40,363 bases of DNA from Solirubrobacteraceae bacterium (lineage in GTDB: Bacteria > Actinomycetota > Thermoleophilia > Solirubrobacterales > Solirubrobacteraceae): contig JADGPN010000005.1 of NCBI GenBank assembly GCA_017882465.1, positions 1 to 40,363 on the forward strand. The letters run 5' to 3'. The notes below the pieces were generated by a model that made no database searches, was not told the origin of the DNA, and was given only the letters and a program-made list of their open reading frames with translations. This document shows positions 25,517-32,768 of the stretch, one piece after another; the first letter of the stretch is position 1; the number at the start of each line of letters is the position of its first letter. Made by a program: the position numbers and the translations under genes.

Positions 25517-26122
25517 CTAATACGGAGGTAGATCCGCCCACCATTGGCCGAGCACCCGGAATGCGGCCCAGAACGCGCGCTTGGCCGGCTCCTCGTCGAG
25601 CGCCTCATCGATGTTGGGTACAAACAGCGCCTCGATTGAGCCGGTCAGCCGCTGGAGCTCGCCCGGCTCCGGGCTCAGCTCGCGGGCCAGCGGGACGTCG
25701 AGGTCGTTCACGGCGCCCAGCGCATCCTCGCCCATCACCACGACGATCTTCGGCTGCACGATCGCCAGCTCCTCGACCAGCCGGGCGACGCAGGCCGGGT
25801 CGGCCATCACCGGATCGGAGACCGGGCACTTGACGCACAGGGTGCCGTACACCGCGAGCGGGTCGATGGACAGTCGCTTGAGCGACTTCATCAGCGCGTT
25901 GCCGGTGCGGCCGTAGAAGGCCACGCCCTCCTCGACCTCCGCGGGACGCGCGGAGTACTTGATCAGGAAGATGTCGGCCTGCGGATGGCCCGACCCGAGC
26001 ACGGGCATCAGGTTGCCCCGCGGACAGTGGGGACAGCTCTGGAGCTCTCGCGTGAGCGCATTGAGCTCGCGGATCGCGCGCTCCAGGTACTTCTCGCGGA
26101 TCTCGTCGTCCGTTGCGGGCAT
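25517..26122 (-). CDS. Divergent uracil-DNA-glycosylase-fold protein
   Basis: 201 residues from ATG 26122, which has GAGGAG just upstream; an ATG at 26167 overlapping the previous stop would add 15 residues. In the long numbering, cysteines C45, C48, C111/C114 and C126 fit the iron-sulfur cluster of family 4 UDGs, and YGRTGNALMKSL resembles their FVGRAGQLLxxxL segment. The motif A position (normally GEAPGxxE) instead reads IKYSARPAEVEEG, and the usual late HPS motif is VPNID. So the fold is probable but uracil excision is doubtful. It is the last gene of the inositol/glycosyltransferase array. Confidence 0.72.
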   Translation of the reverse strand: MPATDDEIREKYLERAIRELNALTRELQSCPHCPRGNLMPVLGSGHPQADIFLIKYSARPAEVEEGVAFYGRTGNALMKSLKRLSIDPLAVYGTLCVKCPVSDPVMADPACVARLVEELAIVQPKIVVVMGEDALGAVNDLDVPLARELSPEPGELQRLTGSIEALFVPNIDEALDEEPAKRAFWAAFRVLGQWWADLPPY

Positions 26123-26166
26123 GCTCCTCGGATTGGACGGCTGGCGGGCTTGTCCTTGCGGGTGCA

Positions 26167-28143
26167 TCAGGACTTGCGTGGACCTCGGCCGGTCACACGG
26201 CGCACGCGGCGGTCTCGCGAGGCCTTGCGGGCAGGTGCCGGCATGGCCTTCGTTTGCAGGAACTTCAGGGCCTGGACGTAGAACAGGCTGGCCGGATTGC
26301 GGACGATATCGGCGTCGCGCAGCGACTCCATGAACTCCTCCGGCCCGTTGAAATCGCGCATGCGGATCCGCACCGAGCCCAGGCCCTGGGGCACGTGCGC
26401 GTCCGAGCCGGCCCCGGCGGGAATCCGGTACTTGGCCGCGAAGCGGACCGCTTCCTCGTTGAACTCGCTGATCGCCACCCGCGGATTGAACACCTCGATC
26501 GCGTCCACGTCGTCGAGCACCGAGAGCAGATGCTCGTAGTCCGGGACCGAGTGCAGGCGGTCGAACGGATGGGGAACGTAGACCAGGCCGCCCTGGCGCT
26601 TGATCTCGGCGATCGTCTCCTCGAGCGTCAGCCCGCGCGGGATCTTCTCTTCGATGAACAGCCCGATCACCTCGCCCTGGTGGGCGGTCTTGACCTCCTC
26701 GGCCACGATCACCTTGACGCCGACGGCCTTCTCGCGCGCCTCGTGGGCGCCTGAGATCTCGTTGTGGTCGGTGACCGCGATCGCCCCGAGTCCGCGGGCC
26801 CGGGCCTCGGCTAGCAGCACCTCGACCGGCGTCGCACAGTCGTAGGAGTGGTCGGTGTGCATGTGCAGATCGACGTCGATCAGCGGACGCTCGGTGAGCC
26901 GCGGGCGAACGCGCCGGTCGCCGCGGCCGTCGTGGCGGCGGGCGACCAGGCGACGGTAGACACGCTCGAGCTCGTCGGTCACCCGCGGCCAGGTGAAGGT
27001 CGCCCGCAGCGCCTGCGCCGAGGCCCTGAGCCCGTCTCGCAGCTCCGAATCGGCGATCACCTTCGTCAGCTGCGCCGTCAGCGTCAGCACGTCTCCGGGC
27101 TCGAACACGAGCCCGTATTCACCCTCGGCGAGTACCTCCTCGTAGGGCGCCAGCCGCGAGGCCACCGGGACCGCGCCCGCGGCGATCGCGCGCACCAGGA
27201 CTCCCGGGGTGGTCCGCACACCCTCCGAGGCAAGCACGACGATGTCGGCGTCCGCCAGCACCTGCGCCTCGCTGCTCTCGCCGGCGCTGAGGAAGCTGAT
27301 CCGCTCGCGCACGAGCCGGCCCAGCGCCGCCGGTGCGGCCAGGGGGCGGGGGGAGAGCACGGTGGCGCTCCAGTCGAGCTCGGGCGGGAGCTCGCGCAGC
27401 GCGCGCAGAAGGGTGCGAAGGGCGGCTCGCTCCTCGCCGGCGATCATCGCCAACCGGACGTGGTCGCGTGCGGCGCGGGTCTCGCCCGGATCGGCACCGG
27501 GAGCTACGACCGCGTACTCGCCGGGGAAGTAGCGCTGCATCAGCTCGCGCGTGGCCTGATAGCTCGCGGTGCGCGCGTCGAGCCGCCCGAACAGGAGCTG
27601 GGCCAGCGGCCGTGCGAGCTGGGTCGAGAGGATGCGCTCGGTCGGAGCGTGGAAGCTGCCGACGTTGAGCGCCCGGGACTGTCGCAGCGCTGAGCTCGAC
27701 GCGCTGGGCGCGAACGGCTCGTGGACGTGGACGACGTCGAGCGGTATCGCGGTCAGCGCATCCTCGATCGTGCGGGCCACGTCGACCGGAAGCGAGGCCG
27801 CACGACGCCGGGTGGGGGAGAACGGCAAGACCTCGCCGACGCCGAGCACCAGCGGACTGGCGAGCGCCCGGTCGAGCAGCCGTTGCGGCTGCTCCCTCGC
27901 GGCTCGGATCGCGCGGCGCGAGTCACGGACCAGCGCGCTGGACTCAGACGGGGCGATCACGACCACTGCGTGACCGCGCCGGGCGAGCTCATCGGAGACC
28001 CGCGCGACGTACTCGTTGACCTCGTTCGCTGCCTCCCACGCGAACGGGGTGACCTGCGCGATCGCGAGGCGGTAGCCGGACGATGCGGCGTCCGCCCAGT
28101 TTGGCGAGCCTGATAGGCGAGCGGGCGGGCGAGCCGCGGACAC
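26167..28143 (-). CDS. GT4 glycosyltransferase fused to a PHP metal-dependent phosphoesterase domain
   Basis: 658 residues from GTG 28143 (MSAARPPARLSGSPNWADAA). Residues about 28-400 are a GT-B enzyme: YRLAIAQVTPFAWEAANEVN, DVVHVHEPFAP, GSFHAPTERI, VVAPGADPGE and, near the donor site, LASEGVRTTPGVLVRAIAAG, where the second Glu of the GT4 EX7E motif is replaced by Arg. From residue 421 a PHP domain follows: D425-L-H427-M-H429, VTDHNEISG (H460), AEEV (E482-E483), PHPFD (H525) and SDAH (D581, H583), so all metal ligands are present. PHP proteins hydrolyse phosphate esters. The tail is basic. No stop separates the parts, so it is one polypeptide. A lipid or inositol-phosphate substrate is inferred from ino1 next door. 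Confidence 0.85.
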   Translation of the reverse strand: MSAARPPARLSGSPNWADAASSGYRLAIAQVTPFAWEAANEVNEYVARVSDELARRGHAVVVIAPSESSALVRDSRRAIRAAREQPQRLLDRALASPLVLGVGEVLPFSPTRRRAASLPVDVARTIEDALTAIPLDVVHVHEPFAPSASSSALRQSRALNVGSFHAPTERILSTQLARPLAQLLFGRLDARTASYQATRELMQRYFPGEYAVVAPGADPGETRAARDHVRLAMIAGEERAALRTLLRALRELPPELDWSATVLSPRPLAAPAALGRLVRERISFLSAGESSEAQVLADADIVVLASEGVRTTPGVLVRAIAAGAVPVASRLAPYEEVLAEGEYGLVFEPGDVLTLTAQLTKVIADSELRDGLRASAQALRATFTWPRVTDELERVYRRLVARRHDGRGDRRVRPRLTERPLIDVDLHMHTDHSYDCATPVEVLLAEARARGLGAIAVTDHNEISGAHEAREKAVGVKVIVAEEVKTAHQGEVIGLFIEEKIPRGLTLEETIAEIKRQGGLVYVPHPFDRLHSVPDYEHLLSVLDDVDAIEVFNPRVAISEFNEEAVRFAAKYRIPAGAGSDAHVPQGLGSVRIRMRDFNGPEEFMESLRDADIVRNPASLFYVQALKFLQTKAMPAPARKASRDRRVRRVTGRGPRKS

Positions 28144-28202
28144 GAGGTGGAGGATAGAGGGGCCGCTACCGCGGCCCTGGTTTGACTGCCGGTAGCGGTC
28201 GG

Positions 28203-29405
28203 CTACTTCTTGGTGCTCGCGGCCCCGCGTGCGGGTGCCTTGGTCTTCGTCGCCGCCTTGCGGATCGGCGGCGGTGCGACCTTGCCGCCGTACTTGGCGA
28301 TGAACTCCTCCGTCAACTCCCGCGCGTCGTCGTCCGGACGCTGGTGCATCGGCGACTTCATCAGGTACGAGCTGGGGCCATCGAGCTGCCCGCTGAGCCC
28401 GTGGTTGAGCGCGAGCTTGCAGCAGCGCACCGCGTCGATCACGATTCCCGCCGAGTTGGGCGAGTCCCAGACCTCGAGCTTCAGCTCTGCGGTCAGCGGC
28501 ACGTCGCCGAACGCCTGACCCTCGAGGCGGATGTGGGCCCACTTGCGGTCGGTCAGCCACGGCACGTAGTCCGACGGGCCGACGTGAACGTCGTCGGCGG
28601 GCAGCGTGTGCCCCATGATCGACGTGACGGCGTTGGTCTTGGAGATCTTCTTCGACTCCAGCCGCTCGCGCTCGAGCATGTTGTAGAAGTCCATGTTGCC
28701 GCCCACGTTCAGCTGCGAGGTGCGCAGCAGCTTCACGCCGCGGTCGTGGAACAGCCGCGCGAGCGTCCGGTGGACGATCGTCGCCCCGACCTGGGACTTG
28801 ATGTCGTCGCCGACGATCGGCAGCCCGGCCTTCTTGAAGCGCTGGTTCCAATAGTCCTCGCGGGCGATGAACACCGGGATGCAGTTGACGAACCCGCAGC
28901 CTGCTTCCAGCACCTGCTCGACGTACCACTTGGTCGCCTGCTCGGAGCCGACGGGCAGGTAGGACACGACCACATCGGTGTTGGTGGCGCGCAGCACCTC
29001 GACGATGTCCGCGGTCGGCCCGGGGGCCTTGGTGATCTTCTGCTTCAGGTACTTGCCGAGGCCGTCGTGCGTCATCCCGCGCATCACCTCGACGCCCAGA
29101 TCGGGGATGTCGCCCCCGAGCTTCAGGGTGTTGTTCTGGCCCGAGAAGATCGCCTCCGAGAGGTCCTTGCCGACCTTGTCGGCGTCGATGTCGAAGGCCG
29201 CGGTGAACTCGATGTCGCGCACGTGATACCCGCCGAGATCGACGTGCATCAGGCCCGGGACCGAGTCGCCCACGCGCGCGTCCTGGTAGTAGCGGATGCC
29301 CTGCACGAACGAGCTCGCGCAATTGCCCACGCCGATGATGGCGACGCGAACCTTGTCCTGCTGGTGTCGCCCGGCGCCGTTGGCCGAGCCGTCGATCGTA
29401 CTCAC
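28203..29405 (-). CDS. ino1: Inositol-3-phosphate synthase
   Basis: 400 residues from GTG 29405 ([20 protein letters not shown]), with AGGGA about 11 bases upstream; an in-frame extension to 29495 is not needed. It converts glucose-6-phosphate to inositol-3-phosphate using NAD. Seen: [86 protein letters not shown] and [10 protein letters not shown], the actinobacterial type of the enzyme. The C-terminus has a Lys/Ala tail. It lies 59 bp before the GT4-PHP start and about 200 bp after the phosphatidyltransferase gene, giving precursor for inositol lipids. Confidence 0.95.
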
Positions 29406-29612
29406 GGTGAAGAGTTCCCTTCTCAAGTGCTCGCGTCGCTGTGCCGGAAGGCCCGGGAGCGCCGTCTTCTGCTGAGGCAGCGGGCTAGCCGCCAAACCAA
29501 CAGGCGCACCCGCTCCCGAGACCTCGCGCTATGTATCCCTGGACAACGAGTTGGTTACACCCGCGTCCTGACCCGGGATCGAGGCGGCGGCGGGCGCGGG
29601 GCGCACGGAGCG
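29406..29612. other. Non-coding gap upstream of ino1
   Basis: No gene is seen in these 207 bases. It is the longest clean gap in the minus-strand lipid array and probably carries the ino1 promoter and leader. An AT-richer island (rc GATACATAG, about 29530-29540) is a possible -10 region, but I see no convincing -35 partner. Confidence 0.35.
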
Positions 29613-30277: not shown

Positions 30278-31057
30278 CTACGCCGATGCCCGTGCGCGTG
30301 ATTCGCGGAACGCCCAGGCATGTGGCCGGGCGCGGGCGAACAGCCGGTCGGCCAGCATCCAGGAGGCTCCCGCGGTCACGGCCCCGAGCACCACGTCGGT
30401 GAGGTAGTGATTACCGGTCGCGATCACGACGAAGCTGACCACCAAGGGATACAGCCGCCACGCGATCCGAGCCGGCAGGGGCTTGACCAGCCGGCCCATC
30501 GCCAACCCGACCAGCATCGCGAAGCACACGTGCATGGAGGGCACGGCGGCGTACAGGTTCAGGAAGCTGTGCAGCGGCCCATTATCGACCTGGACGCCCG
30601 TGAACTGCGCGATCGAGTCGGTGAAGCCCCACTCCGACATCAGCCGCGGCGGCGCGGTCGGGTAGAGCCAGTAGCCCACCAGAGCGATCGCCATGGCGAC
30701 CATGAACACGTTGCGCACGAAGTAGAAGGAATCGTTCCGGCGCAGGTAGATGAACACCAATACGCCCAGCGTCACCGCGTAGTGGGCGTTGAGGTAGATC
30801 CAGTCGGCCGAGTCGATGATCCAGTGCCGCGACGAGGCCCAGCCCTGGATGCTGGGCTCGACGAACACGTGCAGCACCCGTTCGAAGTTGATGATCTTGG
30901 TCGCGTCGCCGTAGGGCTTGTAGCCGCTGCCGTCGACGATCCCGCGCACCACCTGATAGAGCACGTAGGCGGCAGCGAACAGCCCGACCTGACGGAATAC
31001 GTCAGGCCAGCCGCGCGGAAGGACCCGCGCCTCGATGGACCGAAGCCGACGACGCAT
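30278..31057 (-). CDS. PAP2 superfamily membrane protein, Aur1/inositol-phosphotransferase-like
   Basis: 259 residues from ATG 31057 (MRRRLRSIEARVLPRGWPDV), with about six membrane helices. Motifs: YWLYPTAPPRLM, AVPSMHVCFAMLVGLAMG (conserved PSMH) and TGNHYLTDVVLGA (catalytic HxxxD). This arrangement is that of the PAP2_3/Aur1 group, which includes inositol-phosphorylceramide synthases and lipid phosphatases. Together with Ino1 and the CDP-alcohol transferase it suggests phosphoinositol headgroup transfer or dephosphorylation of phosphatidylinositol phosphate. No ribosome site is clear; the longer in-frame start at 31144 would overlap the membrane protein upstream. Confidence 0.85.
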   Translation of the reverse strand: MRRRLRSIEARVLPRGWPDVFRQVGLFAAAYVLYQVVRGIVDGSGYKPYGDATKIINFERVLHVFVEPSIQGWASSRHWIIDSADWIYLNAHYAVTLGVLVFIYLRRNDSFYFVRNVFMVAMAIALVGYWLYPTAPPRLMSEWGFTDSIAQFTGVQVDNGPLHSFLNLYAAVPSMHVCFAMLVGLAMGRLVKPLPARIAWRLYPLVVSFVVIATGNHYLTDVVLGAVTAGASWMLADRLFARARPHAWAFRESRARASA

Positions 31058-31115
31058 GGCAGGCGGGCATCCTATCGATGCTCGCGGGCCGACCCAATTA
31101 GGGTTTCGGGTGCTC

Positions 31116-32768
31116 TCAGCTGCACCTCGGCGAGCGCGCGCCAACGCGCCCCAGCGAGAACGCCGCCGCGAGGCGGGTCACACCGGCGTGCCGCAACGTC
31201 AGGTGCGTGAAGTCGCCCGCCGGCATCACGCACCCGAACCCATCGCCGAGCTTCCAGTACGGCGTGAAGCGCACGTGCACCAGCGCGGTGCCGGGACGGA
31301 GCACCGAGATTGTCAGCGAGTCCGAGCCGATCGAGCGCAGGGTCGCCGCGCCCTGCACGATCGGCGTGGCATCGATGACCTCGTACACGGCCCAGTGCCG
31401 CATCCGCCGGGCCAGCCGCAGGTAGGGCAGGCCGCGGTCGATCAGCCGCGTCTCGCGGTGGGCGGAGTAGTCGAGGCGCGCGTCCGGCACGGCCACGAAG
31501 CGCACGGCCAGGCTTCGCAGCCAGGCGTGGTAGGTCTGCGGGTTCAGCGCACCGCCGTAGAACAGGTGGTTGTCCTGGATATCGAGCTGTCGCTCCCAGC
31601 CGCGGGCGATCGGGAACCGCGGCGCGACCACGTACGCCTCCCAGTGGAACTGGGTGAAGGGGATCTCGACCCGGAACGGAGGCCCTGACTGGCGGCCGAG
31701 GAAGTCGAGCAGCGGCTGGTAGTAGGCAGCCGAGGCCGATGGATCGCCGGTGGCGGTGCGCACATCGCGGACGGGCGCCTGCCACTGGAGATAGATCAGC
31801 GGCACGGCGACGGCCAGCAGCAGCGCGGGGCGCCGGCGCCACCACAGCAGCGCCGCCAGGGGGCCCGCGACGAGCGCCCCGAGCCGGGCGACATTGCTGC
31901 CCACCGGGGTCGCGATCGCGAACGCCACCAGACAACCGGCCACGTACAGCGCCACGCCGGCGCGCAGCGTCCATGCGTCCCGGGGGAGCGCCAGCAGGGC
32001 GGCGACGCCGACCACCGGGATCGGCCACAGCGTCGCGAACGTGAACGGCTCGGTGCCCCCTTCCGGAAAGGCGATCGCGAGCGCCGCGACGGGGATCAGC
32101 GCGGCAGCGGCCAGCGCGATCCCGGCGAGGGGATTGGGGGGCTGGGCCCGCGCCCGCGCGGCCGCGGGCGGGTGAACGGGGGGATCTGCCGGCGTGGGCG
32201 CGGGCGGGTGCTGGTCCTCCCGATCCTGCCGTGCGCCCATCCAGGCGCCGATCGCGTAGGCGGCCCCGCCGATGGCGGCGAACAGCGCCGCGACCGGGCT
32301 GCACAGGGCTGACAGCGCCGCCAGGCCACACGCCGGCACGGGCCGGCGCCGCTCCAGCGCGAGCATCGCGGCCACGGCCGGGAGCAGCCCGAAGGCGAAT
32401 GCGAGCCGGCCGGTGAACAGGTTGGTGGCGGTGGCCGCCCCGAACCAGGTCGCGCCGAGCCACGAGTCCGGGCCGAAGCGATCGTGGGCCAGCGGCGCGA
32501 ACAGCGCGGCTGTCGCGGTCGCGGCGATCGCCGCCGCCAGCTGCGGGGTCAGCGCTGCTGCCGCCGGCGGGAACAGCACGCTGTAGCTGGGCGTGTGGTG
32601 CCCGCCGTACCACCAGTTGTTCCAGATCCCGAAGCCCTGGACGGTGAACAGCTTGGCCCGCAGCAGGTGCGTCGCGAGGTCGAGGCTGGGCGGCGAGACC
32701 ACGACGTAGACGAACGCGAGCACTCCGGCCACCGCCACCGGAGCTATCCGCCTGGGATCGACGCTCAT
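31116..32768 (-). CDS. Large multi-pass membrane protein, GT-C-like, unknown function
   Basis: 550 residues from ATG 32768 (MSVDPRRIAPVAVAGVLAFV). About ten hydrophobic segments occupy residues 8-330; the first outer loop holds FTVQGFGIWNNWWYGGHHTP, a layout like membrane sugar transferases. A Pro/Ala-rich hydrophilic insert (DREDQHPPAPTPADPPVHPP) lies near residue 185. The last 220 residues form a soluble domain with EIPFTQFHWEAYVVAP and FVAVPDARLDYSAH. The ATG overlaps the hydrolase stop by one base (TGATG). I cannot name a family; a role in envelope assembly is inferred from topology and lipid-enzyme neighbours. Confidence 0.8.
   Translation of the reverse strand: MSVDPRRIAPVAVAGVLAFVYVVVSPPSLDLATHLLRAKLFTVQGFGIWNNWWYGGHHTPSYSVLFPPAAAALTPQLAAAIAATATAALFAPLAHDRFGPDSWLGATWFGAATATNLFTGRLAFAFGLLPAVAAMLALERRRPVPACGLAALSALCSPVAALFAAIGGAAYAIGAWMGARQDREDQHPPAPTPADPPVHPPAAARARAQPPNPLAGIALAAAALIPVAALAIAFPEGGTEPFTFATLWPIPVVGVAALLALPRDAWTLRAGVALYVAGCLVAFAIATPVGSNVARLGALVAGPLAALLWWRRRPALLLAVAVPLIYLQWQAPVRDVRTATGDPSASAAYYQPLLDFLGRQSGPPFRVEIPFTQFHWEAYVVAPRFPIARGWERQLDIQDNHLFYGGALNPQTYHAWLRSLAVRFVAVPDARLDYSAHRETRLIDRGLPYLRLARRMRHWAVYEVIDATPIVQGAATLRSIGSDSLTISVLRPGTALVHVRFTPYWKLGDGFGCVMPAGDFTHLTLRHAGVTRLAAAFSLGRVGARSPRCS

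What the first reader, a model, noticed from the sequence alone, without database searches (positions are those of the whole stretch)
26167..28143. Natural GT4-PHP fusion next to inositol-phosphate synthase
One polypeptide joins a glycosyltransferase, whose second EX7E Glu is Arg, to a PHP domain with complete metal ligands. It could transfer a sugar and then remove a phosphate, for example in glycosyl-inositol lipid or mycothiol-like synthesis (MshA-type GT4 uses inositol-3-phosphate and is followed by a phosphatase step). A fused transferase/phosphatase for that step would be attractive.
Basis: inference. Interest (0 to 1): 0.6.

Follow-up and report, generated by a model that had tools for sequence, protein, structure and literature searches.

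The report
Dead mannosyltransferase fused to PHP phosphatase
Across a class of soil actinobacteria, a gene beside the inositol-lipid synthesis genes joins a PimA-like sugar transferase that has lost its catalytic residues in most lineages, this one included, to an apparently intact PHP phosphatase, and the protein is a good candidate for the still unidentified enzyme that removes the phosphate from phosphatidylinositol phosphate.

Summary
The fusion is real: one 658-aa ORF (28143-26167, minus strand) with GT4 and PHP domains. It is not local: about 270 of 299 genomes of the class carry it, almost always next to phosphatidylinositol-phosphate (PIP) synthase and usually inositol-3-phosphate synthase. 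Both EX7E Glu positions (PimA E274, E282) are Arg; Gly16 and Lys202 are also lost. Two lineages independently deleted the whole donor-binding GT domain while keeping the N-half and the PHP domain (AU p = 0.0007). A separate GT4 with all PimA motifs sits elsewhere in the genome. The GT half is nearest PimA, not MshA, and no MshA reaches its cut-off. The PHP half is nearly invariant, with its metal ligands (one His replaced by an invariant Glu), in every family but one (f5), which lost them. Best explanation: a membrane-associated PHP phosphatase that dephosphorylates PIP to PI, the dead PimA half holding the inositol lipid. Activity and substrate are inferred, not shown. Main rivals: the neighbouring PAP2 protein is the PIP phosphatase, or the PHP acts on another phosphate.

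The parts
26167..28143 (-). GT4-PHP fusion protein, 658 aa, GTG start
   Evidence: Open frame; Pfam domains; class-wide family; AF2 model pLDDT 91.6, pTM 0.90
27469..28071 (-). GT4 N-terminal (acceptor) half, residues 25-225, with the PimA-like HEPFAPS motif and H165 (PimA H118)
   Evidence: Alignment to PimA; kept in the deletion variants
26944..27468 (-). Degenerate GT4 donor-binding half, residues 226-400; PimA R196->A, K202->A, E274->R310, E282->R318
   Evidence: Residue table; absent in G191, G273, G226, G235, G298
26299..26883 (-). PHP domain, residues 421-615, ligands H427, H429, D435, D459/H460, E483, E491, H525, D581, H583
   Evidence: Pfam; invariant columns; alignments to 3e0f, 7ug9, 2yb1
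26170..26298 (-). C-terminal helix and basic tail, residues 616-658
   Evidence: 13 K/R and 1 D/E in the last 46 residues; helices in the model
28203..29495 (-). Inositol-3-phosphate synthase (Ino1)
   Evidence: TIGR03450 E 3.5e-159, PF01658
29613..30275 (-). CDP-alcohol phosphotransferase, PIP-synthase type
   Evidence: PF01066; NF040950 / NF045883 E about 1e-38, below the equivalog cut-offs
30278..31144 (-). PAP2_3 membrane protein (AUR1 / inositol-phosphoceramide-synthase-like)
   Evidence: PF14378 E 1e-40; weak NF052609 match
25517..26167 (-). Uracil-DNA-glycosylase-superfamily protein, start codon overlapping the fusion's stop; constant neighbour
   Evidence: PF03167; near the fusion in 75 of 80 loci

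Best explanation
The protein is a PHP-type metal-dependent phosphatase whose N-terminal extension is a catalytically dead PimA-like glycosyltransferase. The kept acceptor half, with the basic C-terminal tail, probably holds the protein on the membrane and recognises the inositol headgroup of the lipid made by the neighbouring PIP synthase. The PHP site then hydrolyses the inositol 3-phosphate, turning PIP into PI. Shown here by computation: the fusion, its gene order, the loss of the sugar-donor site, the deletions of the donor domain, the kept PHP ligand set and the PimA kinship. Inferred: that the PHP domain is active, that its substrate is PIP, and that the N-half binds lipid.
For: PIP synthase lies beside the fusion in 17 of 18 class loci from nine families and in 53 of 80 named loci, many on short contigs. 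PHP ligands invariant in 52 members; PHP identity within the order 0.77 against 0.47 for the donor half. PimA donor residues lost, with their roles given in PMC9883506. Donor domain deleted independently in two lineages (AU p 0.0007), and the deletion variant still models well, pLDDT 91.2, pTM 0.88. The step after PIP synthase lacks a known enzyme in actinobacteria (PMC6506517). The Bacteroides PIP phosphatase family PgpA is absent from 40 of 40 genomes, and the cluster's PAP2_3 protein resembles the BT_1522 role rather than the phosphatase BT_1525. Basic tail.
Against: No activity data. In family f5 all 16 PHP-bearing members have lost the ligands and one genome lacks the PHP, although the gene stays next to PIP synthase, so that family needs another phosphatase. 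H118 and other N-half residues are lost in f7 and f10, and one f10 protein keeps almost no recognisable GT, so lipid recognition by the N-half is not general. A PAP2 protein is nearby in many loci and could be the phosphatase. PHP enzymes act on varied phosphoesters, so substrate cannot be read from the fold.
Confidence: 0.45

Rival explanations
1. The PAP2_3 membrane protein two genes upstream is the PIP phosphatase, and the GT4-PHP protein acts on a different phosphate, for example free inositol phosphate or a later glycolipid intermediate.
For: PAP2 proteins are often lipid phosphatases; PF14378 E 1e-40; in the cluster in 42 of 80 loci.
Against: PAP2 was not found next to the fusion in the sampled f6, f9, f8 and f12 loci and three of four f5 loci, although PIP synthase and the fusion are. 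Its best named family is phosphoinositol dihydroceramide synthase, a transferase role. Hydrolysing free Ins3P would waste the substrate of PIP synthase (inference).
Confidence: 0.25
2. Bifunctional enzyme: the GT half transfers a sugar to an inositol lipid and the PHP removes a phosphate.
For: Family f6 keeps PGGV, K202, E274, E282 in its best members and all PHP ligands; the GT half is PimA-like.
Against: In the window protein G16, R196, K202, E274 and E282 are all lost; relatives delete the donor domain altogether; a separate GT4 with all PimA motifs is present in the genome.
Confidence: 0.05
3. The protein is mainly a non-catalytic scaffold or regulator of the PIP synthase step, and neither half needs to be active.
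For: In f5 the PHP site is lost, or the PHP absent, while the gene stays next to PIP synthase.
Against: PHP ligands are invariant in all the other families sampled, hard to explain without metal-dependent catalysis.
Confidence: 0.12

Closest known systems
PimA, phosphatidylinositol mannosyltransferase (PDB 2gej, 4n9w)
   Same: GT4 fold and closest sequence kinship (E 1e-31; top Foldseek matches); HEP.APS motif and H118 kept; inositol-lipid gene setting
   Different: G16, R196, K202, E274, E282 lost; PHP domain added; donor domain deleted in some relatives
PHP phosphoesterases: RNase AM (7ug9), TM0559 (2anu), C. violaceum 2yb1, B. adolescentis 3e0f; CehA/McbA domain NF038032
   Same: PHP fold and ligand motifs; NF038032 at 75.8 bits against a cut-off of 80
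   Different: Fused to a dead GT4; one ligand His replaced by an invariant Glu; linked to PIP synthase
Bacteroides PIP phosphatase BT_1525 (PMC9246714)
   Same: Would fill the same slot in a PIP synthase / Ino1 / PAP2-like cluster
   Different: Unrelated PgpA family; PgpA absent from 40 of 40 genomes tested here
MshA, D-inositol-3-phosphate glycosyltransferase
   Same: GT4 enzyme that uses an inositol substrate
   Different: Separated by a 100% branch; profile match far weaker than PimA; no MshA or MshC over cut-off in the genome

Membership tests
PimA (active GT4) | GT-B fold and PimA kinship | tested here: met
   Profile E 1e-31, Foldseek, tree
PimA (active GT4) | EX7E glutamates E274 and E282 | tested here: not met
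   R310 and R318; variable across the order
PimA (active GT4) | Pyrophosphate-binding Gly16, Arg196, Lys202 | tested here: not met
   Glu, Ala, Ala in the window protein. R196 is also Gln in three PimA homologues of the class, so it weighs less
PimA (active GT4) | Essential His118 | tested here: met
   H165
MshA / mycothiol | TIGR03449 score over cut-off | tested here: not met
   26.3 bits against 462.5; no gene of the genome over the cut-off
MshA / mycothiol | MshC present in the genome | tested here: not met
   Best 274 bits against 485; assembly about 95% complete
MshA / mycothiol | MshB and MshD present in the genome | not tested
   Searches kept for other questions
PHP superfamily phosphoesterase | Metal-ligand motifs | tested here: met
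   All present, one His replaced by Glu
PHP superfamily phosphoesterase | PHP fold | tested here: met
   Foldseek to 7ug9 and 2anu, E 2.5e-10, with the deletion variant's model
CehA/McbA metallohydrolase (NF038032) | Score over the curated cut-off | tested here: not met
   75.8 against 80 bits
PIP phosphatase (function) | Gene linkage to PIP synthase | tested here: met
PIP phosphatase (function) | Dephosphorylates PIP to PI | not testable with these tools
   Needs an enzyme assay or lipidomics

The most novel reading that the evidence does not exclude
The unidentified phosphatidylinositol-phosphate phosphatase is, in this class of actinobacteria, a PHP enzyme built onto a dead PimA. The fusion began as a bifunctional mannosyltransferase-phosphatase, as family f6 may still be, and then decayed in opposite ways: the GT was lost in most lineages and the PHP in f5.
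Probability: 0.35. Interest if true: 0.72.

Novelty: new variant of a known kind. Interest (0 to 1): 0.55.

Why it matters
Actinobacterial phosphatidylinositol, the base of PIMs, LM and LAM in relatives, needs a phosphatase after PIP synthase that the literature still called unidentified in 2019 (PMC6506517). A conserved, gene-linked PHP candidate makes that step directly testable in this class. The family is also a clear natural example of a glycosyltransferase turned into a non-catalytic module, with intact, decayed and deleted stages all surviving.

Tried and rejected
Mycothiol reading: rejected; MshB and MshD were not searched. PgpA-type PIP phosphatase as an alternative: absent in 40 genomes. 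PHP linkage to inositol genes outside the class: stand-alone PHP relatives (L212-L229) are not near PIP synthase, Ino1 or PimA by tblastn; by eye, L212 has a UppP-like neighbour and L217 and L224 a PAP2-like one (not confirmed by a family search). Chance fusion by frameshift or misassembly: rejected by class-wide conservation. A replacement phosphatase beside the f5 gene: none obvious by eye in the ORF lists. Earlier reports of this architecture: none found in the open-access library, which does not exclude one elsewhere.

Full report
Observation. The minus-strand ORF 28143-26167 encodes 658 aa without a stop. It holds GT4 domains (residues 42-365) and PHP plus PHP_C domains (425-610), all over Pfam cut-offs. 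The same-strand run is PAP2_3 protein, PIP-synthase-like enzyme, Ino1, fusion, UDG-like protein. AlphaFold2 gives a confident model (pLDDT 91.6, pTM 0.90) whose best PDB matches are PimA structures.

Distribution. In the 61 genomes nearest to the window, a long fusion match is found in nearly all, across four families of the order, at 51-77% identity. In the class, 278 of 299 genomes match the family profile at E <= 1e-30. A handful of the weakest of these may be the PimA paralogue, which scores up to about 1e-46, so about 270 is the safer figure (my count from the list). Elsewhere in the phylum the listed matches cover only the PHP part (stand-alone proteins) or only the GT part (PimA-like). 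The fusion is therefore a class-wide trait in this sample.

Gene order. In the 80 named-genome loci, UDG is found near the fusion in 75, Ino1 in 66, PIP synthase in 53 and PAP2 in 42, many contigs being short. In 18 further class loci from nine families, PIP synthase is close in 17; the eighteenth contig ends inside Ino1. In f5 loci L236 and L237 the fusion directly follows PIP synthase with no Ino1 between.

The GT half. The profile matches PimA at E 1e-31 and MshA only at 8e-8. In a tree of GT domains (quick method, SH-aLRT support) the fusions group with PimA, and MshA is separated by a 100% branch. The fusions other than f6 form one supported clade (95); the position of f6 relative to PimA is not resolved. 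Alignment to PimA shows that the window protein has P14A, G15N, G16E, R196A, K202A, E274R and E282R and keeps H118. PMC9883506 gives the roles of these residues in PimA and reports lost or drastically reduced activity for Ala variants of the ManT equivalents of E282, K202 and E274. The donor-site residues vary across f1, f2 and f3. In genera g35 (f1) and g41/g42 (f3) the donor domain is absent: model positions 1-195 run straight into 367-613 in G273, with the like in G191, G298, G226 and G235. A PHP tree places the two groups apart, and the AU test rejects a single clade (p 0.0007). G220, of the same genus code as G191 and G273, keeps the full length. The deletion variant is predicted to fold well (pLDDT 91.2, pTM 0.88). 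One f10 protein keeps almost no recognisable GT. A GT4 with all the PimA motifs (PGGV, K202, ESFG, E282) is at G000:C610, fused to an LPG_synthase_TM domain.

The PHP half. Its metal ligands are invariant or nearly so in 52 aligned class members, f5 not included. One position that is His in characterised PHP enzymes is Glu in all of them (E491; alignments). Identity within the order averages 0.77, against 0.53 for the GT N-half and 0.47 for the donor half. Family f5 is the exception: all 16 PHP-bearing sequences tabulated lost most ligands, one genome has no PHP in the gene, and PHP identity drops to 0.46. In f5 most members keep the second EX7E Glu but lack the Gly loop. In f6 the best members look intact in both halves. 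The pattern is opposite decay of a fusion that may once have been bifunctional; that ancestral step is inference.

Mechanism. Bacterial PIP synthases make phosphatidylinositol phosphate, and a phosphatase must follow; in mycobacteria it was described as yet unidentified (PMC6506517). In Bacteroides it is most probably BT_1525, a PgpA-family protein, in a cluster that also has a PIP synthase, an Ino1 and BT_1522 (PMC9246714). PgpA was found in none of 40 genomes here, and the PAP2_3 protein of this cluster weakly matches the family named for phosphoinositol dihydroceramide synthase. The linked, conserved PHP protein therefore best fits the empty slot. The kept N-half and the basic tail (mean net charge +7.7 in the last 35 residues of 91 loci entries, some repeated, against -0.4 background) suggest lipid and membrane contact; this is inference. 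The f5 exception means that the function is not universal to the gene.

Novelty. Each domain belongs to a known family; the architecture and the decay history are not reported in the papers I could search. I rate it a new variant of a known kind. That the window protein is not an active glycosyltransferase is strong (about 0.9); the PIP phosphatase assignment is moderate (0.45).

Noticed in passing
L129:4004-6370 (G000:C610); open frames of about 780 aa in most relatives: The GT4 with all PimA motifs is fused to an LPG_synthase_TM membrane domain (PF03706, E 3e-32). A mannosyltransferase joined to a possible lipid translocator is worth its own look.
   Followed up: partly
L236, L238, L245, L265-L275 (family f5); L237: In f5 the PHP ligands are lost in all 16 members seen, and L237 (G066) has no PHP at all, yet the gene stays next to PIP synthase. 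What replaces the phosphatase is unknown.
   Followed up: partly
window 25517-26167: A divergent uracil-DNA-glycosylase-superfamily protein (PF03167; far below NCBIfam equivalog cut-offs) is a constant neighbour of the fusion, and its start codon overlaps the fusion's stop here.
   Followed up: no
just upstream of the fusion's start codon in many relatives; window about 28144-28155: A TAGACT-like box lies a few bases before the GTG in many relatives, as expected for leaderless transcription from a promoter of its own.
   Followed up: no
window 31116-32723: A conserved membrane protein before the PAP2 gene (near the fusion in 40 of 80 loci) has no Pfam or NCBIfam match.
   Followed up: no
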